Notes under the pieces: model-generated | Database searches by the model: none | The model's input: the letters and a program-made list of their open reading frames with translations, nothing else | What the model was told of the DNA's origin: nothing | Assembly (NCBI GenBank): GCA_947452785.1 | Contig: CANGDZ010000026.1 | Coordinates: 1 to 43,690 of the forward strand | Direction of reading: 5' to 3' | Source of the DNA: Comamonadaceae bacterium | GTDB lineage: Bacteria > Pseudomonadota > Gammaproteobacteria > Burkholderiales > Burkholderiaceae_C | Length of the DNA stretch: 43,690 nucleotides | Program-made: the position numbers and the translations under genes | Part shown: positions 3,679-35,065 of the stretch, one piece after another | Numbering within the stretch: position 1 is the first letter of the stretch | How the letters are laid out: each line of letters opens with the position of its first letter

Positions 3679-3681
3679 GGA

Positions 3682-16251: not shown

Positions 16252-16344
16252 GAGTTGTCTCCAAAAATTAAGTAAATCGGACGTACGCTTTGCATCAAGT
16301 GGCAAGTGGTCTGGCGTACCCGGGTCAGACCCCCTCGCCCAAAA

Positions 16345-17622: not shown

Positions 17623-17636
17623 GTTGAACCTCGCGA

Positions 17637-18185
17637 TCAGTGTTTGGAAGGAGATGCGTCGGTTTCGCCATGGGGCGACTCTTCCGACTCTTGAATCAAC
17701 AGCAAATGTTCATCGTCAATCTGGCCGGTGACCAGGCGGAACAAGTCCATCAGCAAAATAGGAAAGCCCAGTAACGAGAACGCCATGGCACTGGCGAAAA
17801 ACCACCCCATGGAAACTTCCATCACCGGACTGACCGAGTCCACGTTGACCTTGAATTGCTCGTAAGCGCCACTGAACAACAGCCATAGGCAGTACAACAT
17901 CAACAACAGCGACAAGCCCATGCAAATTCTTTTGCCAGTAGGGCCAAGCTTGCCCACCAGCATGTCGGTGCCCAAGTGCGCGTTCTCGCGCAAAGCCACC
18001 ACGGCGCCCAAGAAGGTCAGCCAAACGAACAACCAGCGCGATAGCTCTTCAGAAACGGTAAAGCCTGAATTGAAGCCGTAGCGCATCACCACGTTGCCAA
18101 ACACCAGTGCCACCATCACCGCCATTGCGGCGGCGATCAAGTAGCCGATGACGCGGCAATACCCAGCTATGAATTTTTGAATCAC
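17637..18185 (-). CDS. dctQ: TRAP transporter small membrane subunit (DctQ family)
   Basis: 182 residues with four predicted membrane helices (VIGYLIAAAMAVMVALVFGNV, LFVWLTFLGAVVAL, GLSLLLMLYCLWLLF, MGWFFASAMAFSLLGFPIL). The motif SRWLFVWLTFLGAVVALRE is diagnostic of DctQ. The start codon is GTG at 18185 with AGGAG at ideal spacing. It is the first gene of the quinate/shikimate operon and lies just behind a putative TetR operator at 18214-18233. Confidence 0.9.
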   Translation of the reverse strand: MIQKFIAGYCRVIGYLIAAAMAVMVALVFGNVVMRYGFNSGFTVSEELSRWLFVWLTFLGAVVALRENAHLGTDMLVGKLGPTGKRICMGLSLLLMLYCLWLLFSGAYEQFKVNVDSVSPVMEVSMGWFFASAMAFSLLGFPILLMDLFRLVTGQIDDEHLLLIQESEESPHGETDASPSKH

Positions 18186-21513: not shown

Positions 21514-21514
21514 T

Positions 21515-22306
21515 TCAGTTCCCCAAATAGGCGTCAAGTACCTGCTTATTGGCGCGAATTTCTTCGGGTGTGCCAATCGCCAAAACCTGACCTTCCACCA
21601 TCACCATGATGCGGTGGCACAGGTCCATGACAAAGTCCATGTTGTGCTCAATCACCACAAAGCTGCTGGCTTTACCATCGGCTCTGCGGGTTTGGTTCAA
21701 CTCTTTGAGCAAGGTGCTGATACCCCCCACCAGCGACGGGTTCACGCCGGCGCAAGGCTCATCGAGCAACACCAAATCAGGCTCGCTCATGAAAGCCATG
21801 GCGATGTCCACCAGTTTTTGCTGACCGTAGCTCAACTCACCGGCTTTCTTGTCGGCCACATGGCGAATATGGAATTGGTCGATCATGGCATCGGCCTTGG
21901 CACCCAGACCGGAGTCGGTGGGCGCAAACATGCGGCTGAACATGCTGCCCCGGTGTTCTTGTGCGGCCACGATCAAGTTGTCTCGCACCGTCATCTTGCC
22001 AAACACTTGCAGCGTCTGGAAGGTGCGGCCCACGCCGCGCCGATTCAGTTCCAAGGGGCCGAGTTTCGTCACGTCTTCGCCGTTCAGCTCGATCTGGCCT
22101 TCGTCCGGCGTGATCTGACCCAACATGCTGTTGAACAAGGTGGTCTTGCCCGAGCCGTTGGGCCCGATCACGCCAAAGATTTCGCCAGGTCGCACTTCGA
22201 AGGACACACCGCCGACAGCTTGAATCGCGCCATAGGCCTTCTTCATGTTGCTGACTTTGAGGATCGGCGCATCGTCAGGCCGTTCAGGGTGATGAGAATG
22301 CGTCAT
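21515..22306 (-). CDS. livG: ABC transporter ATPase, LivG type
   Basis: 263 residues. Walker A GPNGSGKTTLFNSMLG, the Q-loop region RTFQTLQVFGKMTVRDN, signature LSYGQQKLVDIAMAF, Walker B DLVLLDEPCAGVNP, and the switch VVIEHNMDFVMDLC are all present, as in LivG. The start overlaps the livM stop (ATGA), so translation is coupled. Confidence 0.93.
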   Translation of the reverse strand: MTHSHHPERPDDAPILKVSNMKKAYGAIQAVGGVSFEVRPGEIFGVIGPNGSGKTTLFNSMLGQITPDEGQIELNGEDVTKLGPLELNRRGVGRTFQTLQVFGKMTVRDNLIVAAQEHRGSMFSRMFAPTDSGLGAKADAMIDQFHIRHVADKKAGELSYGQQKLVDIAMAFMSEPDLVLLDEPCAGVNPSLVGGISTLLKELNQTRRADGKASSFVVIEHNMDFVMDLCHRIMVMVEGQVLAIGTPEEIRANKQVLDAYLGN

Positions 22307-23277
22307 GCTTTGACTCCTGCTGCAGCGCGGGCCGCCGAGGCCTCACGTGATTGGCGACGGGCCTTGATGCGGTCGGGGATGCTGAGCAAGCCGTCCGGCA
22401 GCCAGATCATCAGCATCACCACAGCGGTGCCGAAAACAAACAAATACCAAGCTTGTGCAAAGCGCAGCCACTCGGGCAAAACCACACCCACAGCAGCGCC
22501 CAGCACGGGGCCGAGAAAATAACCAGGGCCGCCCACCACCACCATCAAATACATCATGATGGACGCACCCACGGTGAACAAGGCCGGGTCAATAAATTGC
22601 ACCTGCGAGGCGTACAAGCCACCCGCCACACCGGCATACACCGCGCCAATGGCAAAGCTCAGCAGCGTGTAGCTGCGGGTGTCAATGCCCAGACTCTCAG
22701 CGCGAATCGCGTTGTCACGCAAAGCCGTAAACGCCTTACCCCAAGGCGAGCGCAGCAAGCCCCACAGCAAAAGCGCCAACACGATCGTGAAGCCCAGTAC
22801 CAGGTAGTAGTAAGCCAGGTTGCCATCAAAGCTGATGCCGCCCAGCGCTGGCCTTGCGATGTTGTTGATGCCGAAGGTGCCGCCCGTCAGCCACTCTTCG
22901 TTGCGCATCACCAACCACAAAGCGGTGTTGAAACCCAAGGTGGCAAAGGCCAGGTAAATCGTTTGCACCCGCAGCGCCGGAAAACCCAAGGCGAGGCCCG
23001 TGACGAAACAGATCATGGCGGCCACCGGCAAGCCCAGCCAAAAGCTGAAACCCGCTTTGAGCATGATGGCCACCGTGTAAGCACCGATACCAAAGAAAGC
23101 GGCATGGCCCAAGGACTTTTGACCGGCGTAACCCACCGTGAGGTTCAGGCCCATGGTGGCGATGATGAACACCAACCAAGTGGTGAACATGTGGATGCCG
23201 TAGTTCTTTAAAAATCCGGGCACGATCACCAGCGCGGCCAGAACGACAAGCGCCACAAACAGATTGAGTTTTTTCAT
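22303..23277 (-). CDS. livM: ABC transporter permease, LivM type
   Basis: 324 residues from the ATG at 23277, which overlaps the livH stop. About eight to ten membrane helices are evident. The LivM hallmarks GLNLTVGYAGQKSLGHAAFFGIGAY and FTALRDNAIRAESLGIDTRSY are present, as is VVGGPGYFLGPVLGAAV near the C-terminus. It forms half of the membrane channel. The C-terminus ends in a basic, alanine-rich cytoplasmic tail. Confidence 0.92.
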   Translation of the reverse strand: MKKLNLFVALVVLAALVIVPGFLKNYGIHMFTTWLVFIIATMGLNLTVGYAGQKSLGHAAFFGIGAYTVAIMLKAGFSFWLGLPVAAMICFVTGLALGFPALRVQTIYLAFATLGFNTALWLVMRNEEWLTGGTFGINNIARPALGGISFDGNLAYYYLVLGFTIVLALLLWGLLRSPWGKAFTALRDNAIRAESLGIDTRSYTLLSFAIGAVYAGVAGGLYASQVQFIDPALFTVGASIMMYLMVVVGGPGYFLGPVLGAAVGVVLPEWLRFAQAWYLFVFGTAVVMLMIWLPDGLLSIPDRIKARRQSREASAARAAAGVKA

Positions 23278-24149
23278 ACTTTGCGCTCCTCTTTGGTGCC
23301 GAGCAAGCCCTGGGGCTTGAACAGAATCACGATCATGAAAATCACCAAGGCAACCGCATCTTTGTAGGCCGGCGAGATATAGGCCGCAGCCAAGTTTTCG
23401 CACACCCCCACCAGCAAGCCGCCCAACAGCGCACCACGCGAATTATTGAAGCCGCCAATGATGGCCGCAAAGAACGCTTTGTTGCCCAGGCCCTCACCCA
23501 TGTCGAATTTCGCCAGGTAGGTCGGCGTCACCAGCAGGGCTGCAGCAGCGGCCAAGATTGCGTTGATGGCGAAGGTGTAAAAAATCATGCGCGGCACATC
23601 GATGCCCAGCACCGACGCGCTTTCGGTGTTTTGCGCCACAGCCTGCATGGCGCGTCCGGTGACCGTCTTGTTCAGGAAGGCTTGCGTCACCAGCACCAAC
23701 ACCATGGCAAAAACAAAGGTGCCCACATCGCTGGCAGAAAAAGTCACGCCGAGCACGTTGAAAATCACGTCGGGGAAGACCTGTGGAAAGGGATGCGGCT
23801 CAGCGCTGTAGCCCGCGCGCACACCATTGCGCATCGCAATCGACAAACCAATGGTGGCCACAACGATCGGCATCATGCCGAACTTGAACAAAGGGTCGAC
23901 CAAGCCGCGCTTGAACAGCCAGCCCAGGACCACGACCGACATCACGATGGACAGCGCGAAGGCGACGTACAGCGACAGACCAGAGCCCAGCAGCATCACC
24001 ATCATGAAGGCGGGCAGCATCACAAATTCGCCTTGCGCAAAATTGATGGTGCCCGACGCTTGCCACAGCAAGGTAAAGCCCAGTGCCACCAAAGCGTAAA
24101 TGCTGCCCGTGGCCAAGCCACTGAAGAAGAGTTGTAGAAAGTCGGTCAT
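23274..24149 (-). CDS. livH: ABC transporter permease, LivH type
   Basis: 291 residues from the ATG at 24149. LivH family blocks are FSGLATGSIYALVALGFTLL, ASGTINFAQGEFVMLPAF, GRAMQAVAQNTESASVLGID and a C-terminal VALVIFMIVILFKPQGLLGT. Multiple hydrophobic segments fit the expected eight-helix permease. It is separated from livK by a transcription terminator. Confidence 0.92.
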   Translation of the reverse strand: MTDFLQLFFSGLATGSIYALVALGFTLLWQASGTINFAQGEFVMLPAFMMVMLLGSGLSLYVAFALSIVMSVVVLGWLFKRGLVDPLFKFGMMPIVVATIGLSIAMRNGVRAGYSAEPHPFPQVFPDVIFNVLGVTFSASDVGTFVFAMVLVLVTQAFLNKTVTGRAMQAVAQNTESASVLGIDVPRMIFYTFAINAILAAAAALLVTPTYLAKFDMGEGLGNKAFFAAIIGGFNNSRGALLGGLLVGVCENLAAAYISPAYKDAVALVIFMIVILFKPQGLLGTKEERKV

Positions 24150-24219
24150 GGAAAGACTCCGTGGGGAAAATTCGCCGCGTATGGCGGTAGCACCTGGGAC
24201 GCGGGGCCCCATTGGATGG

Positions 24220-24250
24220 AAAAAAAGCGGACTCCGGTTGGAGTCCGCTT
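24220..24250 (-). terminator. Intra-operon terminator between livK and livH
   Basis: On the minus strand AAGCGGACTCC - AACC - GGAGTCCGC is followed by seven T: a perfect stem of at least 9 bp with a four-base loop. It lies between the binding-protein gene and the permease genes. It would end most transcripts after livK, giving more binding protein than membrane components. Confidence 0.88.
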
Positions 24251-24266
24251 CAATGCCTGAGTCGGA

Positions 24267-25397
24267 TTACTTCTTGGCGCTCAAAGGTGGCAGAGTGGCG
24301 GTAACGACTTGATGACCCCCTTTGACTTCGACCATGAAGCTGTCGCGGTCCAGGTCGCCCTTGTCGTCAAAGCACACGTCCATCAAAATGCCAGGGGTCT
24401 GTTTGGTGCTGAAGCAGCCGCCACGGATGGCCGCCGCCACGGCCTTGCGGTCAAGCTTGCCGACTTTCTCAATCGCCGCTTTCAACACGTACATGCCGGT
24501 GTAGCCCTTGATACCGTTGTGGTCGGACTCGGACTTGTATTCGGTTTTGTACTTGGCACCAAAGGCCTTGATGGGCGTTGCTTCGATCGTGAGGCCCACG
24601 TGGCCCAGCGCGCCGTTGGCGGCATCACCGGCCAGCTCGATCACTTTCTGACCGATCAGGGTGGTCTCTCCAACCAGCGGCTTCTTCACGCCTTGTTTGC
24701 GAAACTCACGCAGCATACGTGCCGATTCCTCTTCATTGGTCACGATGAAGATGGCGTCGGCATCGATCTGTTTGGCTTTGAGCACCGCAGCCGAAAAGTC
24801 GACCGCGCCAGCATCGGTAGAGATGTCAGCCACCACCTTGGTGGACGAGCCCTCCATCAGTTTGGTCAGGGTGTCACGACCACCTTTACCGAAATCGTTG
24901 TTGGCGTAAATCACGGTCAACGTTTTGTAATGGGTGTTGATGAACTTGGCCAGCTTGGGGTAAGAGATGTTTTGACCGAAGGCCGTGCGGAACACATAAG
25001 GGTTGCCTTGGGCGGTGATCGCAGCCGCTTCACCACCGGTGAAGTTAGGTGTTTCGCCGCGCTTGGATTCGGCCATGGAGACCATGATGGAGCCAGAGTA
25101 GACGGGGCCGAAGATGGCAAAGGTGTCGTTGTCCACGGCCTTTTGTGTCAAGCCCTTGGCCACGCCAGGATTGGTCTGGGTGTCTTCGGTGGTATAGCTG
25201 ATTTTCTTGCCCAAGATACCGCCCGTGGCGTTGATCTCTTTGATGGCCAGCTCAACGCCGTTTTTGAAAACGGTGCCTGCGGTGGCGCCAGGACCCGAGA
25301 GCTCAACGATGTTGGCAATCTTGATGTCTTGAGCTTGGGTCAAGCCAGACACGGCCAAAGCGGCGCAGACGGCGAGAGTTTTCAGGGTAGCTTTCAC
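24267..25397 (-). CDS. livK: ABC transporter substrate-binding protein (LivK / aromatic-acid type)
   Basis: 376 residues starting at a GTG (25397) with AGGAG at good spacing. The signal peptide is LKTLAVCAALAVSGLTQAQ. The mature part is a type I periplasmic binding protein: IKIANIVELSGPGATAGTVF, GILGKKISYTTEDTQTNP, FAIFGPVYSG, YANNDFGKGG and GYTGMYVLKAAIEK. Relatives bind leucine, amides, urea or aromatic acids. Its place among KstD-like and AroE-like genes suggests an alicyclic or aromatic acid (inference). Two cysteines near the C-terminus (GGCFSTK, MDVCFDD) could form a disulfide. Confidence 0.9.
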   Translation of the reverse strand: MKATLKTLAVCAALAVSGLTQAQDIKIANIVELSGPGATAGTVFKNGVELAIKEINATGGILGKKISYTTEDTQTNPGVAKGLTQKAVDNDTFAIFGPVYSGSIMVSMAESKRGETPNFTGGEAAAITAQGNPYVFRTAFGQNISYPKLAKFINTHYKTLTVIYANNDFGKGGRDTLTKLMEGSSTKVVADISTDAGAVDFSAAVLKAKQIDADAIFIVTNEEESARMLREFRKQGVKKPLVGETTLIGQKVIELAGDAANGALGHVGLTIEATPIKAFGAKYKTEYKSESDHNGIKGYTGMYVLKAAIEKVGKLDRKAVAAAIRGGCFSTKQTPGILMDVCFDDKGDLDRDSFMVEVKGGHQVVTATLPPLSAKK

Positions 25398-25526: not shown

Positions 25527-25570
25527 AAACGTTCGTTAATCGCGCATAAAAGATCAATCAACGAACGTTT
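25527..25570. repeat. Inverted pair of 11-bp quasi-palindromes upstream of livK
   Basis: AAACGTTCGTT (25527-25537) and its exact complement AACGAACGTTT (25560-25570) are separated by 22 bases. Each copy is itself nearly symmetric (AACG-nn-CGTT) and their centres are 33 bases apart, about three helical turns. They lie just after the flavoprotein stop codon and ~130-170 bases before livK. Two cooperating operators for the livK promoter fit best; a weak terminator stem is the alternative. Confidence 0.55.
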
Positions 25571-27312
25571 CAAGGGTTAGCACCGACGGCGCTGGCGCCC
25601 ACTGCTCGCGCGTGTTGGGTCGCCAAATAAGCGAACACCAGGCTCGGTCCAATTGTGATGCCGGGCGCCGGATACACCCCGCCCATGATGGAGTTCATGT
25701 CATTGCCCACAGCGTACAAGCCCGCAATGACTTGCCCTTGCGCATTCAGCACTTGGGCATGGGCGTTGGTTTGTAAACCTTGCGCCGCGCCAATGTCGCC
25801 GGGGTAGAGCTTGACGGCGTAATACGGCCCTTCGCTCATCGTGCCCAAATTCGGGTTGGGGCCACCCACCGCGGCATCGCCAATGTTCTGTTGGTAAGCC
25901 GTCACGCCGCGCTGAAATTGCGTGTCCACGCCGGTTTGGGCAAAGGTATTGTTGTTGGCCACCGACTGCGCCAGGCCCTCGGCGGAGATATTCAGCTTTT
26001 GCGCCAGCGCGTTCAACGTGGCGCCTTCGGTCAAATAGCCATCCGCCAAAAACGGCGCCAGCCCCTTGCCGCCCGGTCGCACCATGCCCATGCCGTAGTG
26101 GCGCAGGGCTTTGGCGTCGGCAATCAAATAGGCAGGCACCGCTTGCTGCGCCGCTTGCATGCCCAAGGCGAACAAATGGTAGGAGGTGCTTTCGTTGACG
26201 AAGCGCTCACCCGCCTGGTTCACCGTGATCATCCCGGGCTTGGCGCGGTCCATCACAAAATGCGGAAACACCGCCGTGCTGCCGTCAGCGCGTTGACGCA
26301 AAGACACGGGCGCCCAGAAGGCCGGACTTTGCGCGCCCTGCCCTTCGACGGCGCCCAAGCCGCGCGCCAGCGCCAAGGCTTCGCCGGTGTGGCCGGGTGC
26401 GGCGGGGCACCACTCGGCGGGAATACCGGGCAATTTTTCAGCGCGCAAAGCCACATCGCGGTTGAAGCCGCCACTGGCCAGCACCACGCCTTTGTGCGCC
26501 AGTACGCGGCAAACCGCACTGCCGCTGCGCAGGCGCACAGCCACCACGCGGCCACTGTCATCGCGCTCCAGCGCGTCCACCGACGTCTGCAGCGCCAGCG
26601 TGGCGTGGGTATGTTGCGCCAAAGAATGCAGCAAACGCCCCACCAGCGCATTGCCCATGACCAGGCGCGCGCCGCGGGTGTAGCGCAACCGGTCACCCAG
26701 GTGGCGCCAGACAATGCGCACCGCATGCTGAAACGAAGCCCAGGACTGCGTCATCGCCAGCAAATGGTTGATGTCGGTGCGGTCCACCATCATGCCGCCG
26801 AGCACCGTGAACTCTGGGATCGGCGGGCGCAGCAAAGAGAACAAATCGCCCAGCAATCGGCCATCAAAAGGCACGGGCTCCAGTGCGCGGCCATTCAGGG
26901 TGGAGCCGGGCAAATCACTGATGTAGTCGGGGTGCTTGGGGTAAGGCCGGAATTTCATCGAAGACCGAGATTCGATGTGAGCCACAGCTTGCGCGCCGTT
27001 GTTTAAAAACGCTTCACGCAAGGCGGCGGGCGCTTGCTCGCCCACAGCATGGTTTAGGTACTTGGCAGCTTCGGCCAGCGTGTCTGACGGATTCACAGCA
27101 GCGCTGTGGTGCGTGCCCGGCACCCAGGTGGTGCCCGCCGACCAGGCGGTGGTGCCGCCCACAAACTCGGTGTGCTCGACCACCAGCACTTTGGCGCCGT
27201 CGATGGCAGCAAACACCGCCGCCGACAAACCCGCGCCGCCCGCGCCAATGACCACCAGGTCAAATTCAGCGCCGTCTTGCAGCCCGTCCAGCCCTTGTTT
27301 TATAAGTTGCAT
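25570..27312 (-). CDS. KstD-like FAD-dependent dehydrogenase 1
   Basis: A 580-residue flavoprotein of the fumarate reductase / 3-ketosteroid Delta1-dehydrogenase group. The FAD-binding motif is VVIGAGGAGLSAAVFAAIDG (residues 21-40), and the C-terminal FAD loop is GNDMNSIMGGVYPAPGITIG. Tyrosines match those used by KstD for alpha,beta-desaturation of a cyclic ketone: Tyr130 (KHPDYISDLPGS), Tyr378 (NESTSYHLF) and Tyr497/498 (GPYYAVKLYPGD). It begins directly after the stop of an AroE-like gene (TGA-ATG), so an alcohol dehydrogenase and a ketone desaturase are co-expressed. Desaturation of a keto-cyclohexane carboxylate is the proposed role. Confidence 0.85.
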   Translation of the reverse strand: MQLIKQGLDGLQDGAEFDLVVIGAGGAGLSAAVFAAIDGAKVLVVEHTEFVGGTTAWSAGTTWVPGTHHSAAVNPSDTLAEAAKYLNHAVGEQAPAALREAFLNNGAQAVAHIESRSSMKFRPYPKHPDYISDLPGSTLNGRALEPVPFDGRLLGDLFSLLRPPIPEFTVLGGMMVDRTDINHLLAMTQSWASFQHAVRIVWRHLGDRLRYTRGARLVMGNALVGRLLHSLAQHTHATLALQTSVDALERDDSGRVVAVRLRSGSAVCRVLAHKGVVLASGGFNRDVALRAEKLPGIPAEWCPAAPGHTGEALALARGLGAVEGQGAQSPAFWAPVSLRQRADGSTAVFPHFVMDRAKPGMITVNQAGERFVNESTSYHLFALGMQAAQQAVPAYLIADAKALRHYGMGMVRPGGKGLAPFLADGYLTEGATLNALAQKLNISAEGLAQSVANNNTFAQTGVDTQFQRGVTAYQQNIGDAAVGGPNPNLGTMSEGPYYAVKLYPGDIGAAQGLQTNAHAQVLNAQGQVIAGLYAVGNDMNSIMGGVYPAPGITIGPSLVFAYLATQHARAVGASAVGANP

Positions 27313-28119
27313 TCATGCACCCATCAAAAATTCAACCATCAGGTCTTTCACCTGCGCAAACATCTCCACCCCGGTCAGGGTCTGGCAACCCAGCGCCCGC
27401 GCCGCCGCGATCATGGGCGGCACAGTGGGCGAGGTGATCACGCAGCCCACGAACATGGCTGGCGTGAATTTGTTTGAATCGATCGGGTGCGGCTCGCCCT
27501 CTTTCATGCCCATCGGCGTGGCGTTGATGGCGATGTCAAATCCCGTTGGGTCGCTGCTGCCGACCACCACCGCGCAGTGGCCCAGCGAAGCCAAGCGCTG
27601 AATCAAGGCATCGCGCCGCGCGGTGTCACCATCGTGAACAGCCAGTTCACGCACGCCGCCCGTGGCCAGCGCATAGGCAATGGCCGAACCGGCGCCGCCA
27701 GCGCCGACCAGCAAGGCCTTTTGGCCTTGCAAATTGAACCCCTTGAGCGCCAGCGCTTTGACGTAGCCCAGGCCATCAAACATATCCCCATGCCAGGAGC
27801 CATCGGCGTTGCGGCGCAGGGTGTTGATGGATTTCAAAAACGCGCCACGGTCTGAGGTGGTGGCGCACAAATCAAAGAACGCGAATTTATGCGGCACGGT
27901 GACGATGATGCCGTCGACGTTTTTGCACAGCGACACGCCTGCCGTCCATGCGGCCAGGTCGGCCGGGGCCACATGGGCGGGAATGCACAAGGCGTTCAGT
28001 CCGGCATTCTGAAAGTCCTGACTCACGCCCGCCGGCGATTTGACCTGGGCAATGGGATCTCCCACGATGAAGTGCACGCGGGAGGCACCGTCCAGATTCA
28101 GCTTGTGTGGGGTCGTCAT
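27313..28119 (-). CDS. Shikimate dehydrogenase-like protein (catabolic AroE paralogue 2)
   Basis: About 268 residues. Lys78 (VTVPHK) and the Asp in GDMFDGLGY are kept, as are Asn in SINTL and the cofactor loop LVGAGGAGSAIAYALATGG. The carboxylate-binding motif reads GDPIAQVKSP: Val26 replaces the first Ser of true AroE. It is probably an NAD(P)-dependent dehydrogenase for a shikimate-like cyclic hydroxy acid. ATGs at 28131 and 28155 are alternatives, but 28155 lies within a likely operator; no clear ribosome site is seen. It is first in an operon with KstD-like flavoprotein 1 and divergent from an IclR gene. Confidence 0.82.
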   Translation of the reverse strand: MTTPHKLNLDGASRVHFIVGDPIAQVKSPAGVSQDFQNAGLNALCIPAHVAPADLAAWTAGVSLCKNVDGIIVTVPHKFAFFDLCATTSDRGAFLKSINTLRRNADGSWHGDMFDGLGYVKALALKGFNLQGQKALLVGAGGAGSAIAYALATGGVRELAVHDGDTARRDALIQRLASLGHCAVVVGSSDPTGFDIAINATPMGMKEGEPHPIDSNKFTPAMFVGCVITSPTVPPMIAAARALGCQTLTGVEMFAQVKDLMVEFLMGA

Positions 28120-28140
28120 GGCCGTGATCATACATAAAAG

Positions 28141-28173
28141 TGGAATATCATTCAACTATTGAATTTATTTCCA
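28141..28173. promoter_or_regulatory. Putative IclR operator between the AroE-like gene and the iclR-type gene
   Basis: A 33-bp dyad with outer arms TGGAA / TTCCA and inner arms ATTCAA / TTGAAT around CTA. IclR proteins are known to bind TGGAAAT-n-ATTTCCA-like palindromes. It lies in the divergent spacer, placed to control both directions. Confidence 0.55.
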
Positions 28174-28215
28174 AAAATCAATATACTCGCCGCATCTCCA
28201 CAAGGAAGCACCCCC

Positions 28216-29049
28216 ATGAGCGGCGTCCTCGAACGAACACTGAGCATTCTGGAATTGCTATCGCAGCACGGCGAAGGCTTGGAATTGGCCGCGATAGCTG
28301 ACCAACTGGACATTCCGCGCAGCGGCACCCACCGCCTGCTGACCGACTTGGTGCGCCTGGGCTATGTGCGCCAAACGCGCGGCCATGGCGACTACCTGCT
28401 GACCACCAAGCTGGTGTCCATGGGCCTGAGCTACCTGAGCAACAGCGGCATTGTTGACATTGCCCAACCCCTGCTGAACCGCCTGGCCGAAGTCTCGGGC
28501 GAATTGGTGCGTTTGTCGGTGGTTGACGGCGAGCGCCTGACCTGGGTGGCCCGCGCCCAAGGCGCACGCCAAGGCCTGCGCTACGACCCTGACATGGGCA
28601 GCGACGCGCGCCTGTCTTGCTCGTCGTCGGGCTGGGCCTTGCTGTCCACGCTGAGTGACGACGAGGCGCTGGCCTTGGTGGCCAAACAGGGCCTGGGCCA
28701 AGCTGATGCTTTTGGCCCGGCCGCGCCCACCACGTTGCAAGCCGTGATCGAAGCCGTGCAAGCCACGCGCGAGCGCGGCTACAGCATCACCACCGACACC
28801 TACAGCATTGGCCTGAGCGCCATGTCCGCGCCGGTGCGCTTTGCCGGTCAACCCGCCTTCGGTGTGCTGACGATTGCCGGCCCGACCGTGCGCTTCACCC
28901 CCGACAAAATGGACGCCTTGGCCGCCGAGTTGCTCAGCACCGCCCAACAGCTGGCGGCATCCAGCGGCGCATCGCCCTTCTTCAGCCTCACGGCCGAGAC
29001 CAGCAAGGCCGCCCCCGTCGACGGGCGCAAACCCATTTACGCGGTCTAA
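28216..29049 (+). CDS. IclR-family regulator of the second module
   Basis: 277 residues from the ATG at 28216, with AAGGA nine bases upstream. The winged helix domain is VLERTLSILELLSQHGEGLE, then LAAIADQLDIPRSGTHRLL and TDLVRLGYVRQ. The effector domain includes GELVRLSVVDGERLTWVARA, RLSCSSSGWALLS and GLSAMSAPVRFAGQPAFGVL. It is divergent from the AroE-like/KstD pair and directly upstream of the second KstD-like gene, so it probably controls both transcription units through the dyad at 28141-28173. The effector is presumably the imported acid or an intermediate. Confidence 0.89.
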   Translation: MSGVLERTLSILELLSQHGEGLELAAIADQLDIPRSGTHRLLTDLVRLGYVRQTRGHGDYLLTTKLVSMGLSYLSNSGIVDIAQPLLNRLAEVSGELVRLSVVDGERLTWVARAQGARQGLRYDPDMGSDARLSCSSSGWALLSTLSDDEALALVAKQGLGQADAFGPAAPTTLQAVIEAVQATRERGYSITTDTYSIGLSAMSAPVRFAGQPAFGVLTIAGPTVRFTPDKMDALAAELLSTAQQLAASSGASPFFSLTAETSKAAPVDGRKPIYAV

Positions 29050-29067
29050 AGCCCGACGTCACTCGCC

Positions 29068-31491
29068 ATGTCCAACGCACCTGAGCCTCATCCTTCTGAG
29101 CCGCAACACGATTGCGACCTGCTGGTCGTCGGCTCCGGTGCGGGCGGACTGTCTGCCGCCGTGACCGCCGCGCACCTGGGCCTCAAAGTCATCGTCGTTG
29201 AAAAAGACCCGCAGTACGGCGGCACCACCGCCTGGTCGGGCGGCTGGATGTGGCTGCCGCGCAACCCGTTGGCCGTGGAAGCCGGGTTGTTGGAGCGCAT
29301 CGAAAAACCACTGTCTTATTTGCGCCGCGAACTGGGCGAGAAGTTCGACGAATCACGCGCCCGCACGTTTTTGCGCAACGGCCCGCGCATGGTCGAGTTC
29401 TTCCGCCAAAACACCGCGCTGCAGTTCATCGACGGCAACACGATTCCTGATTTTCATGGCCACACCCCCGATGCGGCCACCGGCGGTCGCTCCATCTGCG
29501 CCGCGCCCTTTGATGCTCGGCAACTGGGCGCGCGCCTGCATGACCTGAAACCCCCGCTGGACGAGACCACGCTGTGGGGCATGGGCATTGCCTCAGGCAC
29601 CGAGCTGCGCCACTTTTTGAATGCGCTGCACCAGCCTTTGTCGTTCCTGTATGTGACCCGCCAGGTGCTGCGGCATTGGAAAGACCGGCTGCTGCACGGG
29701 CGTGGCACACGCCTGGTCAATGGCAATGCGCTGATCGGTGCGCTGGCGAAATCAGCCTTTGATCGAGGCGTGGAGATTCGCCTTAACAGCCCGGTGCTGC
29801 GCTTGCTGCAAAACGAGGAGCGTGTGAATGGCGCTGTGGTGCAAACGACGCAGGGCGAGGTCACGATCCATGCCCGCTGCGGCGTGCTCCTGGCCACCGG
29901 CGGCTTTCCGCATGACCCAGCGCGCAAACAGCAACTGCTGCCGCATGCCCCAACGGGCAACGAGCACTGGTCTGCGGGCAACCGCGGCAACACGGGCGAC
30001 GGCTTGCGCCTGGGCGAGAGCGCCGGCGGCGTGGTGGCGGGCGACCTGGTGCAAGCGGCGGCGCTGGCCCCCGTGTCGCTGGTGCCGCGTGCCGATGGCA
30101 GTACCGCCCACTTTCCGCACTTGATCGAACGCGCCAAGCCCGGCCTGATCGCGGTCACCGCGCAAGGCCTGCGCTTTGCCAATGAAGCCAACTCGTACCA
30201 CGACTTCATGCAAGCCCTGCTGGCCGTCACACCGGCCGATCACAAGCCCGAGGCATGGCTGGTGTGCGACCACGCTTTCATTCACTACTACGGGCTCGGC
30301 GCCGTCAAACCCGCGCCCATGCCGCTGGGCCCTTGGCTCCAAAATGGTTATCTGAAACGCGGCCACTCATTGCACGAACTGGCGCAGGCTTGCGGCCTTC
30401 ATGCCCAAGCCCTGCAAGCCACAGTCCAACGCTACAACGCCCAAGCGCAAGAGGGCAAAGACCTCGACTTCGGCAAGGGGGACACGGCTTACAACCTCAT
30501 CCAGGGTGACGCCCTCCGCGCCAACGCCCAAGGCCTGCGCAACCCCTGCATGGGGCCGATTGAGCGTGGCCCTTTCTACGCCGTCAAAGTCGTCATGGGC
30601 AGCTTGGGCACCTTTGCCGGATTGCGCGTGAACGATCACGCACAGGTGCTCGACGCCCAAGGCCAGCCTATCACCGGCCTCTACGCCGGCGGCAACGATC
30701 TGAACAGCATGATGGGCGGCCACTACCCGGCCGGCGGCATCACGCTCGGCCCGGCCATGACATTTGGCTTTATGGCCGCACAACACGCCGCTGGGCGCGA
30801 TCCGGCGGCCACCTGCGAAAACCCGATTTCAAACCCTTCCACCCAGACGAAGAAACACCCCACCATGTATTACGAACTCGCCACCATGACCCTGCCCTTT
30901 GGCACCGCAGGCCAAGCCGCCACGAACGTGCAGGCCTTTGCCTCCGATGCGCAAGCGCAGGGCGAACTGCTCGGCTGCTGGTTCACCGACATCGGCGTGC
31001 TCAACCAAATGATTGTGCTGCGCGGTTTCAACACCTTGGAATCCCTGCAAGCCGAACGCGAACGCACCCAGCAAAGCGCAAGCCCCTTCAATTGCGGCGA
31101 GATTTTCCAAACCCTGGAGCAGCACAGCTACAAAGGCTTCCCCTGGATGAAGCCCGTGCGCCCCAGCGCCGAGTCCGGCATCGCCGGTCCGGTGTACGAA
31201 ATCCGCACCTACGGCATCAAGCCGGGCGGCGTGCAGCCCACCGTCGATTTGTGGGAACAATCGGTGCCCGCGCGCGACAAGCTCTCGCCTTGCGTGGTCG
31301 CCATGGTCGCGCTCGATGGCCCGCTGCGCTTTACCAACATCTGGGCCTACGACAGCTTGAATTCCCGCAGCCAAATCCGCGGCGAAGCGGTGGCCCAAGG
31401 CATCTGGCCGCCCAAAGGGGGCCCAGCCCATTTGACCACCCAAATGGTCTCCACCATCGCCATGCCTACCGCAGTGTCACCACTGAAATGA
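29068..31491 (+). CDS. KstD-like FAD dehydrogenase fused to a NIPSNAP-family protein
   Basis: 807 residues. Residues 1 to ~578 are a complete KstD-like flavoprotein, the same length as its paralogue at 25570-27312: FAD motif VVGSGAGGLSAAVTAAHLG, Tyr377 (NEANSYHDF), Tyr504 (GPFYAVKVVMG) and C-terminal FAD loop GNDLNSMMGGHYPAGGITLG. At the first KstD Tyr position it has Phe129 (IPDFHGHTPD). Residues 579-599 are a polar linker. From Met600 (MYYELATMTLPFG) a full ~208-residue NIPSNAP protein follows, with a second repeat near VYEIRTYGIKPGGVQPTVDL. These families are normally separate chains. The stop overlaps the next start (ATGA). Confidence 0.85.
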   Translation: MSNAPEPHPSEPQHDCDLLVVGSGAGGLSAAVTAAHLGLKVIVVEKDPQYGGTTAWSGGWMWLPRNPLAVEAGLLERIEKPLSYLRRELGEKFDESRARTFLRNGPRMVEFFRQNTALQFIDGNTIPDFHGHTPDAATGGRSICAAPFDARQLGARLHDLKPPLDETTLWGMGIASGTELRHFLNALHQPLSFLYVTRQVLRHWKDRLLHGRGTRLVNGNALIGALAKSAFDRGVEIRLNSPVLRLLQNEERVNGAVVQTTQGEVTIHARCGVLLATGGFPHDPARKQQLLPHAPTGNEHWSAGNRGNTGDGLRLGESAGGVVAGDLVQAAALAPVSLVPRADGSTAHFPHLIERAKPGLIAVTAQGLRFANEANSYHDFMQALLAVTPADHKPEAWLVCDHAFIHYYGLGAVKPAPMPLGPWLQNGYLKRGHSLHELAQACGLHAQALQATVQRYNAQAQEGKDLDFGKGDTAYNLIQGDALRANAQGLRNPCMGPIERGPFYAVKVVMGSLGTFAGLRVNDHAQVLDAQGQPITGLYAGGNDLNSMMGGHYPAGGITLGPAMTFGFMAAQHAAGRDPAATCENPISNPSTQTKKHPTMYYELATMTLPFGTAGQAATNVQAFASDAQAQGELLGCWFTDIGVLNQMIVLRGFNTLESLQAERERTQQSASPFNCGEIFQTLEQHSYKGFPWMKPVRPSAESGIAGPVYEIRTYGIKPGGVQPTVDLWEQSVPARDKLSPCVVAMVALDGPLRFTNIWAYDSLNSRSQIRGEAVAQGIWPPKGGPAHLTTQMVSTIAMPTAVSPLK

Positions 31492-32297
31492 ACCGCATTT
31501 TCTCCCTCGCCTACCTGAGCTCGCACCGCTGCACACCGGTCCAGGCCATCCAGGTCGCGGCCCAGACGGGCTACGACTTTGTGGGCCTGCGCTTATGGCC
31601 CAACGCACCGGGCGCGCCACAGCAACACCTGCTGGGACAGCCCGAGGCCTTGCGCGAAGTGCTGGCTGCGCAGCGAGACACCGGCGTGGGTGTGTTCGAT
31701 CTGGAAATCATCCGCATCGGTGAACACTTTGACCCGCACAGTTGGGACGCGTTGTACGACGCAGGCGCCGCACTGAAAGCCAAGGCTATCTTGGTGGCCG
31801 GGGACGATAGCGACGAAGCGCGCCTGACCGCGAACTATGCCCGCCTGTGCGAAATGATGCAGCCCTTTGGCATGACCGCCGATCTGGAGTTCATGCCGTG
31901 GACCGCCGTGAAGGACGCCCAATCGGCGATGCGCATCGTGCAAAACGCGGGCAGTCCGGCCAACGCAGGCATCTTGGTGGACGCGCTGCACTTTGGCCGC
32001 TCAACCACCACGCTGGAAGACATTCGCGCCATCCCACGTGCACTGCTGCATTACGCGCAAATTTGCGATGCACAGGCCGGTCTGAACTTCACGACCGAAC
32101 AAATGATCCACACCGCACGCTGCGAGCGCCTGTTACCCGGCGACGGCAACATCGATTTGCCCGCTCTGTTTGCTGCCCTGCCCGCTGACCTGCCGGTGAG
32201 TGTCGAGGTGGTGAACTTTGACCGCGAAGCGAACACCGGCGTTGCCGACTGGGCCGCCGAATGCCTGATCAAAAGCCGCCCCTTCGTGGAACGCTGA
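31488..32297 (+). CDS. TIM-barrel sugar-phosphate isomerase/epimerase-like protein
   Basis: 269 residues, starting at the ATG that overlaps the preceding stop. It shares the fold and metal-site pattern of dehydroshikimate dehydratases and xylose-isomerase-like enzymes: Glu in ADLEFMPW, Asp in ILVDALHFGR, Gln in YAQICDAQ and Glu in SVEVVNFD. It lacks the QuiC block FQxxRDFEG. It could dehydrate or isomerise a cyclic hydroxy-keto acid produced by the neighbouring dehydrogenases. The reaction cannot be fixed from sequence. It is co-transcribed with the flavoprotein fusion. Confidence 0.8.
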   Translation: MNRIFSLAYLSSHRCTPVQAIQVAAQTGYDFVGLRLWPNAPGAPQQHLLGQPEALREVLAAQRDTGVGVFDLEIIRIGEHFDPHSWDALYDAGAALKAKAILVAGDDSDEARLTANYARLCEMMQPFGMTADLEFMPWTAVKDAQSAMRIVQNAGSPANAGILVDALHFGRSTTTLEDIRAIPRALLHYAQICDAQAGLNFTTEQMIHTARCERLLPGDGNIDLPALFAALPADLPVSVEVVNFDREANTGVADWAAECLIKSRPFVER

Positions 32298-32323
32298 ACC
32301 CTCAAATTATTCTGGAGCCCCAC

Positions 32324-33484
32324 ATGGACTTTTCACTAAACGACGAACAAAAAATGATGATTGAAACGGTTCGCCGTTTCATTGCCGAGGAACTCCAACC
32401 GCTTGAAGACGAGGTCGAAGAAAAAGGATTTCTGGACAACGCCAAGTCACAGGCCATTCACACCAAGGGCAAGGCGCTGGGCCTGTACGGCATGAACATG
32501 CCGGCCGAGTTGGGCGGTGGCGGCCTGTCGAATCTGGACCGCATCTTGTGCGAAGAGCAGTTTGGCCACACCACCGACATCCTGATCCGCCGCGCCTTTG
32601 GCAATGTTTACGAGCCACTGCTGCACTGCCAGGGCGACCAGGTCGAGCGCTGGCTCAAGCCCGCCGTCGAAGGCACGCGTACCTGCGCCATCACCATCAC
32701 CGAACCAGGCGCGGGCTCTGACGCGGCAGGCATCAAAACCCACGCCAAGAAAACCGATCAAGGCTGGGTGCTCAATGGCGCCAAGCACTTCATCAGCGAC
32801 GGCGAGTGGAGCGACTTCTTTCTCGTCTCCGCCAAAACCGGTGACAAAGAAATTTCAATGTTCATGGTGGACAAGGGGCTGGCCGGTTTCACGGTGGGCA
32901 AAGACCAAAAGATGATGGGCCTGCGCGGCACGCCGCACTTAGAATTATTTTTTGACAACGTGCAGCTCGATGACGCCTGTCTGCTGGGCGAAGCCGGCCA
33001 AGGCTTCAAGCTGGCCATGGGAGCACTCAATGTGGTGCGCCTGGCCCAGGTGGGCGCGCGCGCCGTGGGCAAGGCCACGCATGTGTGCGAGTTGATGGTG
33101 AACTGGGCCAGCGAGCGCAAGCAGTTCAATACCCGCATTGGCGACTTCCAGATGGTGCAGCAGATGATCGCCGACAGCGTGATCGAGATCAACGCTGCGC
33201 GCTGGATGGTGTACCACGCGGCCTGGATGCTGGACCAAGGCATGGACGCACGTGAGCAGATCGCCATGGTCAAAGTGCAGGCTTCCGAAACCCTGGGCCG
33301 CGTGGTGGACCGCGCGGTGCAGGTGTTTGGCGGCATGGGCTTTTGCAAAGAGCTGCCGATCGAGCGCTATTACCGCGATGCCCGCATTTACCGCATCTAT
33401 GACGGCACCAGCGAAATCCACCGGGGCGTGATCGCCAAGAGCGCGATGAAAAAAGGTGCTGTGTTGTTTGATGTGAACCGCTGA
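32324..33484 (+). CDS. Acyl-CoA dehydrogenase with Asp at the catalytic-base position
   Basis: 386 residues from the ATG at 32324 (ribosome site TGGAG). Acyl-CoA dehydrogenase domains are clear: the ITITEPGAGSDAAGIKTHA flavin/substrate loop, GAKHFISDGEWSDFFLV, VARAVGKATH-like helices, and the C-terminal QVFGGMGFCKELPIERYYRD. Most family members have the base Glu in YEGTSxIQR; here the segment is IYDGTSEIHR (Asp360), as in the ACAD10/11-like branch. It desaturates or otherwise processes a CoA-bound acid. It sits between the isomerase and the CoA-transferase, so the CoA ester is probably made by that transferase. Confidence 0.88.
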   Translation: MDFSLNDEQKMMIETVRRFIAEELQPLEDEVEEKGFLDNAKSQAIHTKGKALGLYGMNMPAELGGGGLSNLDRILCEEQFGHTTDILIRRAFGNVYEPLLHCQGDQVERWLKPAVEGTRTCAITITEPGAGSDAAGIKTHAKKTDQGWVLNGAKHFISDGEWSDFFLVSAKTGDKEISMFMVDKGLAGFTVGKDQKMMGLRGTPHLELFFDNVQLDDACLLGEAGQGFKLAMGALNVVRLAQVGARAVGKATHVCELMVNWASERKQFNTRIGDFQMVQQMIADSVIEINAARWMVYHAAWMLDQGMDAREQIAMVKVQASETLGRVVDRAVQVFGGMGFCKELPIERYYRDARIYRIYDGTSEIHRGVIAKSAMKKGAVLFDVNR

Positions 33485-33490
33485 GACGAG

Positions 33491-35065
33491 ATGCAAACAA
33501 AATTCATGACCGCAGCCCAGGCTGCACAACTGATCCAAGACGGCGACACCGTGGGCCTGATGGGCGGCGGCGGTGGCCTGATGGAAGCCACCCACCTGTT
33601 TGAAGCGGTGCAAGAACGCTTTCTCAGCACCCAACAACCGCGCAAGCTGACGCTGATCCATGCCCTGGGCATTGGCGACAAAAAAACCAAAGGCATGAAT
33701 TGCTTCGCGCACGAAGGTCTGGTCAAGCGCGTGATCGGCGGGCACTGGGTTTGGTCGCCGGCCATGCAGCAACTGGCCCTGACCAACAAGATCGAGGCCT
33801 ATATTTTGCCGGGCGGCGTCTCCAGCCAGCTGATGCGCGAGATCGGCGCCGGCCGCCCCGGCCTCATCAGCCATGTGGGCCTGGGCACGGTGTGCGACCC
33901 GCGCCACGGCGGCGGCAAAATGAACGAGGCGGCGCAAGATGAGTTGGCCGAGGTGATTCACATCGACGGGCACGAATACCTGCGTTACAAGCCTTTCCCC
34001 GTCCATGTGGTCATTGTGCGCGCCAGCAGCGCCGACGAAGAAGGCAACATCAGCTTCGAGCACGAAGCCGCGAATCTGGACGCGCAATCCTTGGCCTTGG
34101 CCGCACGCGCCAGTGGAGGCAAAGTCATTGTGCAAGTCAAAGAGCGATTGCCCCAAGGCGCGCTCAAAGCCCGCGAAGTGCGCATTCCTGCAGCCTGGGT
34201 CGACGCCATCGTGGTCGACCCGAACCAGTCCGCCAGCTACGACATCCCGTTCGACCCCGCCCTGAGCGGCGAGTTGACGGACGCCGCACGCGCCGCGAGC
34301 GAAGCCGAAGATCACAGCCGTGAAGTGGCGGCCTCGCAAGAAGCCTTCAGCGAACGCCAGGCTGTGGCCCGACGTGCAGCGGTGGAGTTGTTCAACACGG
34401 GCAAGGCGCGTCCGGTCATCAACTACGGCGTGGGCGTGCCCGACGCGGTGGCCAAGCTGATCGCCGCGCGCAACGAGCAGCACCGCATTTACCAAACCAT
34501 TGAACACGGCACCTACGGCGGCACGCTGATGGACGGCGTGCTCTTTGGCTACGCCCGCAACGCCAGTGCCATGCTGGACGCCGCCACGCAGTTCGACTTT
34601 TACGGCGGCGGCGGCCTGGACATTGCCTTCTTGGGCTTTGGTGAGTTTGACGCGCAGGGCAGCGTCAACGTCTCACGCCTGGGAGGTTTCACCGTGGGCC
34701 CTGGCGGTTTCATCGACATCGCGCAGAACGCGAAAAAAGTGGTGTTCTGCGGCACGCTGGCCGCCAAGGGCGTAAAGCTGCAAACTGGCGATGGGCAGAT
34801 ACGCGTGATGGCGCAAGGCGCTGTGAAAAAGCTGGTGAACAAAGTCGATCAAATCACCTTCTCAGGCCCGCAAGGCCTGGTGCGCAAGCAAGACGTGCTG
34901 TACCTGACCGAGCGCGCCAGCTTCAGACTCACCCCCGCAGGCATCGAACTGTTCGAGATCGCGCCGGGGATTGATCTGCAGCGCGATGTGCTTGATCAAA
35001 TGGAGTTCGCGCCGCTGATCGCCAAGGACTTGAAAGTGATGGACGGGGCGCACTTTAGGGCTTAA
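33491..35065 (+). CDS. Acyl-CoA:carboxylate CoA-transferase (family I, fused alpha-beta)
   Basis: 524 residues, with both halves of a 3-oxoacid CoA-transferase in one chain (YdiF/acetoacetate CoA-transferase type). The N-terminal half has DGDTVGLMGGGGGLMEATHL and a linker region PGGVSSQLMREIGAGRPG. The C-terminal half has INYGVGVPDAVAKLI and IEHGTYGG, whose Glu (about residue 338) is expected to form the CoA thioester. It would activate the imported acid, or a ring-opened product, using acetyl- or succinyl-CoA. It follows the acyl-CoA dehydrogenase after six bases and is last in the plus-strand operon. Its end overlaps the convergent thioesterase by four bases. Confidence 0.87.
   Translation: MQTKFMTAAQAAQLIQDGDTVGLMGGGGGLMEATHLFEAVQERFLSTQQPRKLTLIHALGIGDKKTKGMNCFAHEGLVKRVIGGHWVWSPAMQQLALTNKIEAYILPGGVSSQLMREIGAGRPGLISHVGLGTVCDPRHGGGKMNEAAQDELAEVIHIDGHEYLRYKPFPVHVVIVRASSADEEGNISFEHEAANLDAQSLALAARASGGKVIVQVKERLPQGALKAREVRIPAAWVDAIVVDPNQSASYDIPFDPALSGELTDAARAASEAEDHSREVAASQEAFSERQAVARRAAVELFNTGKARPVINYGVGVPDAVAKLIAARNEQHRIYQTIEHGTYGGTLMDGVLFGYARNASAMLDAATQFDFYGGGGLDIAFLGFGEFDAQGSVNVSRLGGFTVGPGGFIDIAQNAKKVVFCGTLAAKGVKLQTGDGQIRVMAQGAVKKLVNKVDQITFSGPQGLVRKQDVLYLTERASFRLTPAGIELFEIAPGIDLQRDVLDQMEFAPLIAKDLKVMDGAHFRA

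What the first reader, a model, noticed from the sequence alone, without database searches (positions are those of the whole stretch)
25570..35065. Candidate alicyclic-acid aromatisation pathway with two KstD-like desaturases
One neighbourhood combines a Liv-type importer, an AroE-like alcohol dehydrogenase coupled (TGA-ATG) to a KstD-like flavoprotein, a second KstD-like flavoprotein, a TIM-barrel dehydratase/isomerase, an acyl-CoA dehydrogenase, a CoA-transferase and an IclR regulator. Known cyclohexanecarboxylate routes use a hydroxy-acid dehydrogenase and two KstD-like 4-oxocyclohexanecarboxylate desaturases to reach 4-hydroxybenzoate. The logic fits, but AroE-like dehydrogenases and a NIPSNAP fusion would be a new version.
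Basis: partly seen in the sequence, partly recalled or inferred. Interest (0 to 1): 0.7.

Follow-up and report, generated by a model that had tools for sequence, protein, structure and literature searches.

The report
Ring-acid-to-protocatechuate gene cluster
This stretch of bacterial DNA holds a set of genes, found side by side in many other bacteria, that likely takes up a hydroxylated six-membered-ring acid and would turn it step by step into protocatechuate, an aromatic compound that bacteria can break open and eat; no step has been tested in the laboratory.

Summary
In detail: all named genes are present, and the AroE-like and KstD-like genes are coupled by TGA-ATG. The block recurs. In 80 named AroE2 loci (best 80 of 435) the partners were found in: IclR2 76, KstD-A 75, KstD-B 70, NIPSNAP 65, TIM2 64. 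It also sits on Paracoccus, Rhizobium and Paraburkholderia replicons. A palindromic site between AroE2 and IclR2, perfect in the window (28142-28172), marks this promoter in 77 of 77 loci with both genes (63 at 3 or fewer mismatches) and lies nowhere else in them: likely the IclR operator. The idea of alicyclic-acid aromatisation is kept, but not the 4-oxocyclohexanecarboxylate route: both KstDs score far below the ChcC1/ChcC2 cut-offs and the window has no P450. Steroid context is not seen. The TIM barrel keeps seven of nine alignable dehydroshikimate-dehydratase residues; LigAB and quinate genes are in the window; LigA is in 27 of 27 cluster genomes against 11 of 18 others. Best reading: a hydroxylated cyclohexane-carboxylate (dihydroshikimate type) is predicted to go to protocatechuate. 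KstD-B has Phe in place of KstD's Tyr119 in 71 of 73. NIPSNAP is fused to KstD-B in 28 of 66 loci, its neighbour in 38.

The parts
20758..25397 (-). Liv-type ABC importer: LivF 20758-21513, LivG 21515-22306, LivM 22303-23277, LivH 23274-24149, substrate-binding protein 24267-25397 (inner starts by inspection)
   Evidence: ORFs; SBP Pfam Peripla_BP_6 E=5e-53; same strand and downstream of KstD-A; SBP found in 25 of 80 named loci
25570..27312 (-). KstD-A: KstD-like FAD flavoprotein with all four KstD catalytic residues (Y130, Y378, Y547, G551)
   Evidence: NCBIfam NF009477 855 bits over cut-off 758; among relatives of 50% identity or more: Y, Y, Y 76 of 76 each, G 75 of 76
27313..28119 (-). AroE2: shikimate-dehydrogenase-family alcohol dehydrogenase of the 4k28 (recalled as RifI2) type
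   Evidence: Pfam Shikimate_dh_N E=7.5e-12; best PDB match 4k28 144 bits; K79, N100, D116 kept 87 of 87; TGA-ATG coupling to KstD-A
28142..28172 (.). palindromic site GGAATNNNNTTCAACTATTGAATNNNNTTCC, likely the IclR2 operator of both divergent units
   Evidence: 0 mismatches, 0 expected in 100 shuffles; only site in the genome at up to 3 mismatches; relatives
28216..29049 (+). IclR2 regulator (ORF opens at TTG 28159)
   Evidence: IclR_C E=1e-23, HTH_IclR E=3e-16
29068..31491 (+). KstD-B fused to a tandem NIPSNAP part: FAD part about residues 1-580, NIPSNAP part from the Met at about residue 600
   Evidence: NF004789 878 bits over cut-off 747; NIPSNAP E=7e-24; Phe129 in place of KstD Tyr119
31488..32297 (+). 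TIM2: xylose-isomerase-like TIM barrel with a dehydroshikimate-dehydratase-like active site (L102, E134, D165, H168, Q191, R214, E240)
32324..33484 (+). acyl-CoA dehydrogenase (accessory; in 37 of 80 named loci)
   Evidence: Pfam
33491..35065 (+). CoA-transferase, FadX-like but below cut-off (accessory; in 35 of 80 named loci)
   Evidence: CoA_trans E=7e-23; FadX 356 bits, cut-off 750
11995..18185 (-). neighbouring quinate set: QuiC split into TIM 11995-12897 and HPPD-like 12894-13796, AroE-like 13821-14654, dehydroquinase II 14714-15154, TRAP importer 15220-18185
   Evidence: TRAP membrane parts by position and by eye
2833..4035 (-). LigAB-type ring-opening dioxygenase: LigB 2833-3678, LigA 3682-4035
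   Evidence: LigB E=3e-62, LigA E=3e-35

Best explanation
This is a conserved gene cluster around one palindromic site, likely an IclR operator, that is predicted to import a hydroxylated cyclohexane-carboxylate and would oxidise (AroE-like), desaturate (two KstD-like flavoproteins) and dehydrate (dehydroshikimate-dehydratase-like TIM barrel) its ring to protocatechuate. SHOWN by sequence: the gene content, its co-conservation, the shared site at the divergent promoter, the kept catalytic residues in KstD-A, AroE2 and TIM2, the Tyr-to-Phe change in KstD-B, and quinate and LigAB genes in the same window. INFERRED: the substrate class, the order of steps and the product. Most likely order: the importer brings in a saturated ring acid of the dihydroshikimate / 3,4-dihydroxycyclohexanecarboxylate type (lacking the 1,2 double bond of shikimate); AroE2 would oxidise the 3-hydroxyl with NAD(P)+ to a 3-ketone; a KstD would take the hydrogens from C2 and C1, which is the alpha,beta-dehydrogenation that KstD does on 3-ketosteroids, giving a dehydroshikimate-type enone; TIM2 would then lose the 5-hydroxyl as water and aromatise to protocatechuate, while the second KstD would finish substrates without a 5-hydroxyl. 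LigAB would open the ring. The NIPSNAP part is the least explained: its closeness and frequent fusion to KstD-B suggest a partner acting on the same substrate, possibly a tautomerase or aromatising step (untested). ACAD and CoA-transferase look accessory.
For: Co-conservation: in 80 named AroE2 loci (best 80 of 435 confirmed; contigs often cut) KstD-A 75, IclR2 76, KstD-B 70, NIPSNAP 65, TIM2 64; in the 34 of 299 family genomes whose KstD-B match is 54% identical or more, TIM2 lies within 4 kb in 31. Site: 0 mismatches in window, the only one in the genome at 3 or fewer; at 6 or fewer in 77 of 77 loci with both AroE2 and IclR2, 63 of them at 3 or fewer, and nowhere else in the 1,388,201 bases of the 81 loci; also in 9 of 10 loci from 9 plasmid/chromid records. 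TIM2: Leu97, Glu134, Asp165, His168, Gln191, Arg210, Glu239 of QuiC1/QsuB align with L102, E134, D165, H168, Q191, R214, E240. KstD-A: four KstD residues. Product link: LigA in 27 of 27 cluster genomes vs 11 of 18 others, Fisher p=0.0007; LigA and LigB genes within about 6 kb of KstD-A in two family relatives, L037 and L039; QuiC beside the cluster in Paracoccus alcaliphilus, QuiC and pcaDCHG beside a partial set in P. aminovorans; quinate genes in the window itself.
Confidence: 0.55

Rival explanations
1. One reading: cyclohexanecarboxylate is hydroxylated elsewhere, oxidised to 4-oxocyclohexanecarboxylate and desaturated twice to 4-hydroxybenzoate.
For: ChcC2 is among the five best NCBIfam models of both KstDs (419 and 497 bits), and scores 519-587 bits with three KstDs of relatives; the SDR of the neighbouring KstD-C module in a relative scores 185 bits to ChcB2 (cut-off 350); PobA over cut-off in 26 of 27 and a P450 match in 25 of 27 cluster genomes.
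Against: The window KstDs reach at most 55% of the ChcC1/ChcC2 cut-offs, relatives at most 65%; no P450 in the window, none in 2 of 27 cluster genomes; the route needs no dehydratase, yet TIM2 is in 64 of 80 loci; AroE2 is of the shikimate-dehydrogenase family, not an SDR.
Confidence: 0.12
2. Catabolism of a cyclitol, deoxysugar or other polyol without aromatisation: Gfo/Idh and AroE-like dehydrogenases oxidise hydroxyls, and the TIM barrel is an inosose-dehydratase or epimerase.
Against: IolI has His where TIM2 has Gln191, though Lmo2234 shares the Gln; two KstD-type flavoproteins have no role that I know of in sugar routes; quinate, QuiC, LigAB or pca genes near the block in the window and some relatives.
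Confidence: 0.12
3. A side branch of shikimate use: KstD oxidises 3-dehydroshikimate directly to gallate, which LigAB-type enzymes open.
For: Removing H4 and H5 of 3-dehydroshikimate is chemically the KstD reaction and gives gallate (inference); LigAB in the window.
Against: The window LigB fits PRK13364 (519 bits) far better than gallate dioxygenase (274, cut-off 412); TIM2 would have no place.
Confidence: 0.06
4. Steroid or terpenoid ring degradation.
For: Both flavoproteins align with KstD along their length; two of the 27 cluster genomes have HsaA-like matches of 363-369 bits, below the cut-off of 450.
Against: HsaA over cut-off in 0 of 27 cluster genomes, best in this genome 43 bits; NCBIfam KstD cut-offs missed.
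Confidence: 0.03

Closest known systems
chc pathway of Sinomonas cyclohexanicum (Yamamoto 2021, seen only as cited in a passage of the introduction of PMC9795900)
   Same: alicyclic acid, alcohol oxidised to ketone, two desaturases, aromatic product
   Different: AroE-like instead of SDR-type (ChcB2 model) dehydrogenase, added DSD-like TIM barrel and NIPSNAP, no P450 in the window, KstDs below the ChcC1/ChcC2 cut-offs
quinate/shikimate catabolism (quinate dehydrogenase, DHQase, QuiC) to protocatechuate
   Same: AroE-family dehydrogenase, QuiC-like metal site in TIM2, genes near each other in the window and a minority of relatives, protocatechuate as presumed end product
   Different: adds one or two KstD-type desaturases and NIPSNAP, as for a ring without the double bond that dehydroquinase makes; separate regulator and importer
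3-ketosteroid delta1-dehydrogenase (KstD)
   Same: fold and, in KstD-A, all four catalytic residues
   Different: KstD-B has Phe in place of Tyr119 in 71 of 73; no steroid context seen
Shikimate dehydrogenase family protein 4k28 (recalled as RifI2 of Pseudomonas putida)
   Same: identical PIAQVKSP stretch, catalytic Lys and Asp
   Different: its substrate in the cell is unknown as far as I recall; 144-bit match only
GenR-type IclR sites, ATTCC-N7(5)-GGAAT (table passage in PMC8222616)
   Same: ATTCC/GGAAT half-site words, aromatic-acid regulons
   Different: here a longer site with a TTCAAnTATTGAA core

Membership tests
4-oxocyclohexanecarboxylate desaturases ChcC1/ChcC2 | score over NF053676 (1000) or NF053677 (900) | tested here: not met
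   KstD-A 300/419, KstD-B 304/497 bits
4-oxocyclohexanecarboxylate desaturases ChcC1/ChcC2 | activity on 4-oxocyclohexanecarboxylate | not testable with these tools
   needs enzyme assay
CHC aromatisation pathway | 4-hydroxylating P450 in the cluster | tested here: not met
   only P450 match of the genome is on contig C15; G184 and G130 have none, 25 of 27 have at least one
KstD | Tyr119, Tyr318, Tyr487, Gly491 in KstD-A | tested here: met
   76, 76, 76 and 75 of 76; residues named in passages of PMC5348764
KstD | Tyr119 in KstD-B | tested here: not met
   Phe in 71 of 73, Met 1, Thr 1; other three residues kept
KstD | steroid gene context | tested here: not met
   HsaA over cut-off 0 of 27
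3-dehydroshikimate dehydratase (QuiC/AsbF) | Leu97, Glu134, Asp165, His168, Gln191, Arg210, Glu239 | tested here: met
   TIM2 L102, E134, D165, H168, Q191, R214, E240: 68-70 of 70 each
3-dehydroshikimate dehydratase (QuiC/AsbF) | Leu136 and Ser206 | tested here: not met
   Met136 (69 of 70), Ala210 (69 of 70)
3-dehydroshikimate dehydratase (QuiC/AsbF) | Arg64 | tested here: inconclusive
   outside the aligned stretch
3-dehydroshikimate dehydratase (QuiC/AsbF) | NF042435 cut-off 1200 bits | tested here: not met
   24.7 bits; a two-domain model that a single barrel could not reach
shikimate dehydrogenase AroE | NCBIfam cut-offs | tested here: not met
   best 129 bits, cut-off 252
shikimate dehydrogenase superfamily | substrate domain PF08501 and catalytic Lys/Asp | tested here: met
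   45.8 bits over 27; K79, D116 87 of 87
NIPSNAP | PF07978 over gathering score | tested here: met
   84.4 bits over 22.3
IclR regulators | HTH_IclR and IclR_C | tested here: met

The most novel reading that the evidence does not exclude
A pathway so far undescribed, spread through Beta- and Alphaproteobacteria partly by plasmids, that re-aromatises reduced shikimate-type acids to protocatechuate, in which a Tyr119-less KstD works as one unit with a NIPSNAP barrel that takes part in catalysis: the first defined metabolic job for a NIPSNAP protein.
Probability: 0.3. Interest if true: 0.8.

Novelty: new variant of a known kind. Interest (0 to 1): 0.62.

Why it matters
Saturated hydroaromatic acids arise when fermenting microbes reduce quinate and shikimate (recalled), yet I know of no defined aerobic route back to protocatechuate. 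A compact, regulated six-gene core with its own importers would supply one, would explain dozens of flavoproteins now named as fumarate-reductase-like, and would give the NIPSNAP family, whose solved bacterial members matched here are titled as of unknown function, uncharacterised or by domain name only, a substrate context that can be assayed. The conserved site gives a ready biosensor part for finding the inducer.

Tried and rejected
Rejected: the 4-oxocyclohexanecarboxylate route as such, steroid context, restriction to the window's family. A class-wide search with AroE2 found 2 of 274 genomes at E<=1e-40, the window's own and one of the same family, but plasmid/chromid records then showed the block in Paraburkholderia, Paracoccus and Rhizobium. 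Considered and not adopted: NIPSNAP as a haem enzyme. Its model (pLDDT 67.7, moderate) matches coproheme decarboxylase, chlorite dismutase and anthrone-oxidase-like barrels, a shared fold only. Bosea vestrisii L164 has only TIM-KstD and no operator. P450 presence in 25 of 27 genomes neither helps nor excludes the CHC route there.

Literature searches whose listings showed no paper on this cluster; only titles and abstract starts were seen, in a library of CC-licensed PMC papers. [quoted passage not shown] its supplements were not read and may hold this regulon, so I do not claim that the operator is unpublished.

Limits: genes were called by a simple ORF script, so small genes and starts can be wrong. 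L161 and L167 are two places of one plasmid. The operator consensus was read from the regions that and one search count, so the in-region match is not independent; the absence elsewhere and the Alphaproteobacterial and Paraburkholderia loci are. One search counted 76 loci with both genes and its base total covered five loci that it had skipped; one search is the corrected count (77 loci, all 81 scanned). L145 is doubtful (genes 8.9 kb apart) and 14 of 77 sites have 4-6 mismatches. Of the 40 unnamed loci, 21 have the site at 6 mismatches or fewer. At 7-8 mismatches one search also shows scattered hits elsewhere in L159, L160 and L162. The residue counts cover only relatives above identity limits (KstD-A 50%, KstD-B 48%, TIM2 and AroE2 35%). 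Both KstD-B exceptions to Phe are in the plasmid set (4 Phe of 6); four KstDs of 54-56% identity have Ile 2, Phe 1, Met 1.


Full report
OBSERVATION. The window is one whole contig (C26) of an unnamed draft genome. The AroE2 matches nearest to it in named genomes are mostly labelled Limnohabitans, up to 88% identical. The left unit on the minus strand runs AroE2 27313-28119, KstD-A 25570-27312, substrate-binding protein and LivHMGF 20758-25397. The right unit on the plus strand runs IclR2 (ATG 28216), KstD-B::NIPSNAP 29068-31491, TIM2 31488-32297, acyl-CoA dehydrogenase 32324-33484 and CoA-transferase 33491-35065.

CONSERVATION. KstD-B relatives (E<=1e-100) occur in 53 of 299 genomes of the family, TIM2 relatives (E<=1e-30) in 40 of 299; the three other genomes of the window's genus in that sample have neither. 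In the 34 genomes whose KstD-B match is 54% identical or more, a TIM2 gene is within 4 kb in 31; the other three are G052 (another contig), G162 (14 kb) and G272 (far). Neighbourhoods of 40 unnamed loci (up to 20 kb) and 80 named loci (up to 10 kb each side), which overlap in part, show the core KstD-A, AroE2, IclR2, KstD-B, NIPSNAP, TIM2. The transporter beside it changes: Liv type with this SBP in 25 of 80, a TctC-type binding protein in 19, another Liv SBP in 7, and TRAP genes in L046, L056 and L057. Interchangeable importers beside a fixed enzyme core are what a catabolic module looks like (inference).

The block is not confined to one family. Plasmid and chromid records hold it in Diaphorobacter, Paraburkholderia largidicola, Paracoccus alcaliphilus, P. 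methylovorus, Paracoccus sp. MA and two Rhizobium, with a partial set in P. aminovorans (identities). Rhizobium sullae carries Liv importer, AroE2, SDR, TIM, two KstDs and NIPSNAP in one run on a plasmid typed as conjugative.

REGULATION. Between AroE2 and IclR2 lies GGAATATCATTCAACTATTGAATTTATTTCC (28142-28172). None of 100 shuffles of the window gave a match. It is the only site at up to 3 mismatches in the genome. At up to 6 mismatches of 23 fixed bases it is at the AroE2-IclR2 promoter in 77 of 77 loci that hold both genes (0-3 mismatches in 63, 4-6 in 14; L145, with the genes 8.9 kb apart, is doubtful), with no other hit in the 1,388,201 bases of all 81 loci; base-shuffled loci gave 2 hits in 2,056,173 bases. 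In the plasmid set it is found with a best score of 3-5 mismatches in 9 of 10 loci; Paraburkholderia has one before the SBP-Liv-AroE2-SDR-KstD unit, one before KstD-B (6 mismatches) and a weaker one (7) before IclR2. That IclR2 binds there is inferred.

ENZYMES. KstD-A: the four residues of the KstD mechanism (Tyr119, Tyr318, Tyr487, Gly491; PMC5348764 passages) are kept in 76, 76, 76 and 75 of 76 relatives of 50% identity or more. KstD-B: Tyr318, Tyr487 and Gly491 are kept, but the Tyr119 place is Phe in 71 of 73, Met in 1, Thr in 1. More distant KstDs have Tyr (9 of 9 at 50-54% identity and 8 of 8 of the KstD-C type), while four at 54-56% have Ile 2, Phe 1, Met 1, so loss of this Tyr is a property of the KstD-B line. 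Since Tyr119 takes the proton together with Tyr318, KstD-B may act on a more acidic C-H, such as that of an enone (inference).

AroE2: nearest solved structure 4k28, with the same PIAQVKSP stretch; the first of the two serines that bind shikimate's carboxylate in AroE (recalled) is Val, while Lys79, Asn100 and Asp116 are kept in 87 of 87. The quinate-set AroE of the window is also nearest to 4k28 (171 bits).

NIPSNAP: a tandem of two beta-alpha-beta-beta-alpha-beta units. Identity to the window's copy is 77-84% in 13 of 14 relatives and 56% in one, higher than KstD-B's 60-81% in the same set of loci. Of 66 named loci with both parts, window included, they share one frame in 28 and are separate genes in 38. 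Fusion and rate of change both argue for a shared task. What it does is unknown.

SETTING. The same window carries LigAB (2833-4035), a split QuiC, AroE-like, dehydroquinase II and TRAP importer (11995-18185) and an IclR gene nearest to PcaR/PcaU though just below that cut-off (261 of 285 bits). In relatives quinate-type genes recur near the block in a minority: of 80 named loci, AroEq at 70% identity or more in 2 (L097, L105), the HPPD-like QuiC half at 64% or more in 4 (L110, L114, L136, L151); of the 40 unnamed, L036, L055, L058, L062 and L074 show one or more. QuiC also lies beside it in two Paracoccus, one with pcaDCHG. LigA was over cut-off in 27 of 27 cluster-bearing genomes (27 of the 34 known) and 11 of 18 others, the latter picked from the top of a listing (Fisher p=0.0007). 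PobA was over cut-off in 26 of 27 (no control run). These point to protocatechuate as the product, with 3,4-cleavage in one Alphaproteobacterium and 4,5-cleavage in the Betaproteobacteria (inference).

MECHANISM. A KstD acting on a 3-oxocyclohexanecarboxylate removes hydrogen from C2 (alpha) and C1 (beta) and so makes the double bond of dehydroshikimate. That gives a simple logic: AroE2 makes the ketone, KstD the enone, TIM2 removes water. Two KstDs allow aromatisation also where no hydroxyl can leave. I favour dihydroshikimate-type acids, at perhaps one in four for the exact substrate; the class of hydroxylated cyclohexane-carboxylates at 0.55. The order of KstD and TIM2 is open, since a QuiC is already present for dehydroshikimate itself.

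VERDICT. Real, conserved, very likely regulated as one unit, and without a paper found in the searches named under Tried and rejected; a new variant of the known kind alicyclic-acid aromatisation, with the chemistry still to be shown.

Noticed in passing
11995-15154 (-): The two-domain QuiC dehydratase is here two genes (TIM 11995-12897, HPPD-like 12894-13796) beside an AroE-like gene and dehydroquinase II.
   Followed up: partly
L077, L078, L085, L093, L094, L117, L125, L134, L138-L141, L143, L149: A third KstD (KstD-C) lies beside the block in 14 of 80 named loci, mostly with an SDR; a single-domain NIPSNAP gene was found in 10 of 80 and an AraC regulator in 9 of 80: a second KstD-NIPSNAP pairing.
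   Followed up: partly
28173-28215 and L075-L094: The 20 nearest named loci (L075-L094) all show a Gfo/Idh oxidoreductase match between AroE2 and IclR2 (Gfo in 37 of 80 named loci); the window has no room for one there.
   Followed up: no
L166 (Rhizobium sullae pWSM1592_2): Near-complete set with two adjacent KstDs and NIPSNAP on a plasmid typed conjugative (MOBQ, MPF_T).
   Followed up: partly
L101, L111, L124, L153, L154: Another AroE-like gene (29-37% to AroEq) and an amidohydrolase (49-53% to window 36418-37266) lie near or inside the Liv operon of some relatives.
   Followed up: no
L158: Misleading public names: AroE2 called ThiF family adenylyltransferase, KstD-B::NIPSNAP called succinate dehydrogenase/fumarate reductase flavoprotein subunit.
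   Followed up: no
7245-9467 (-): Large gene that looks like a molybdenum hydroxylase (recognised by eye, not scanned), with c-type cytochrome-like ORFs nearby.
   Followed up: no
L052 KstD-A: One relative has Asp at the Gly491 place of KstD-A.
   Followed up: no
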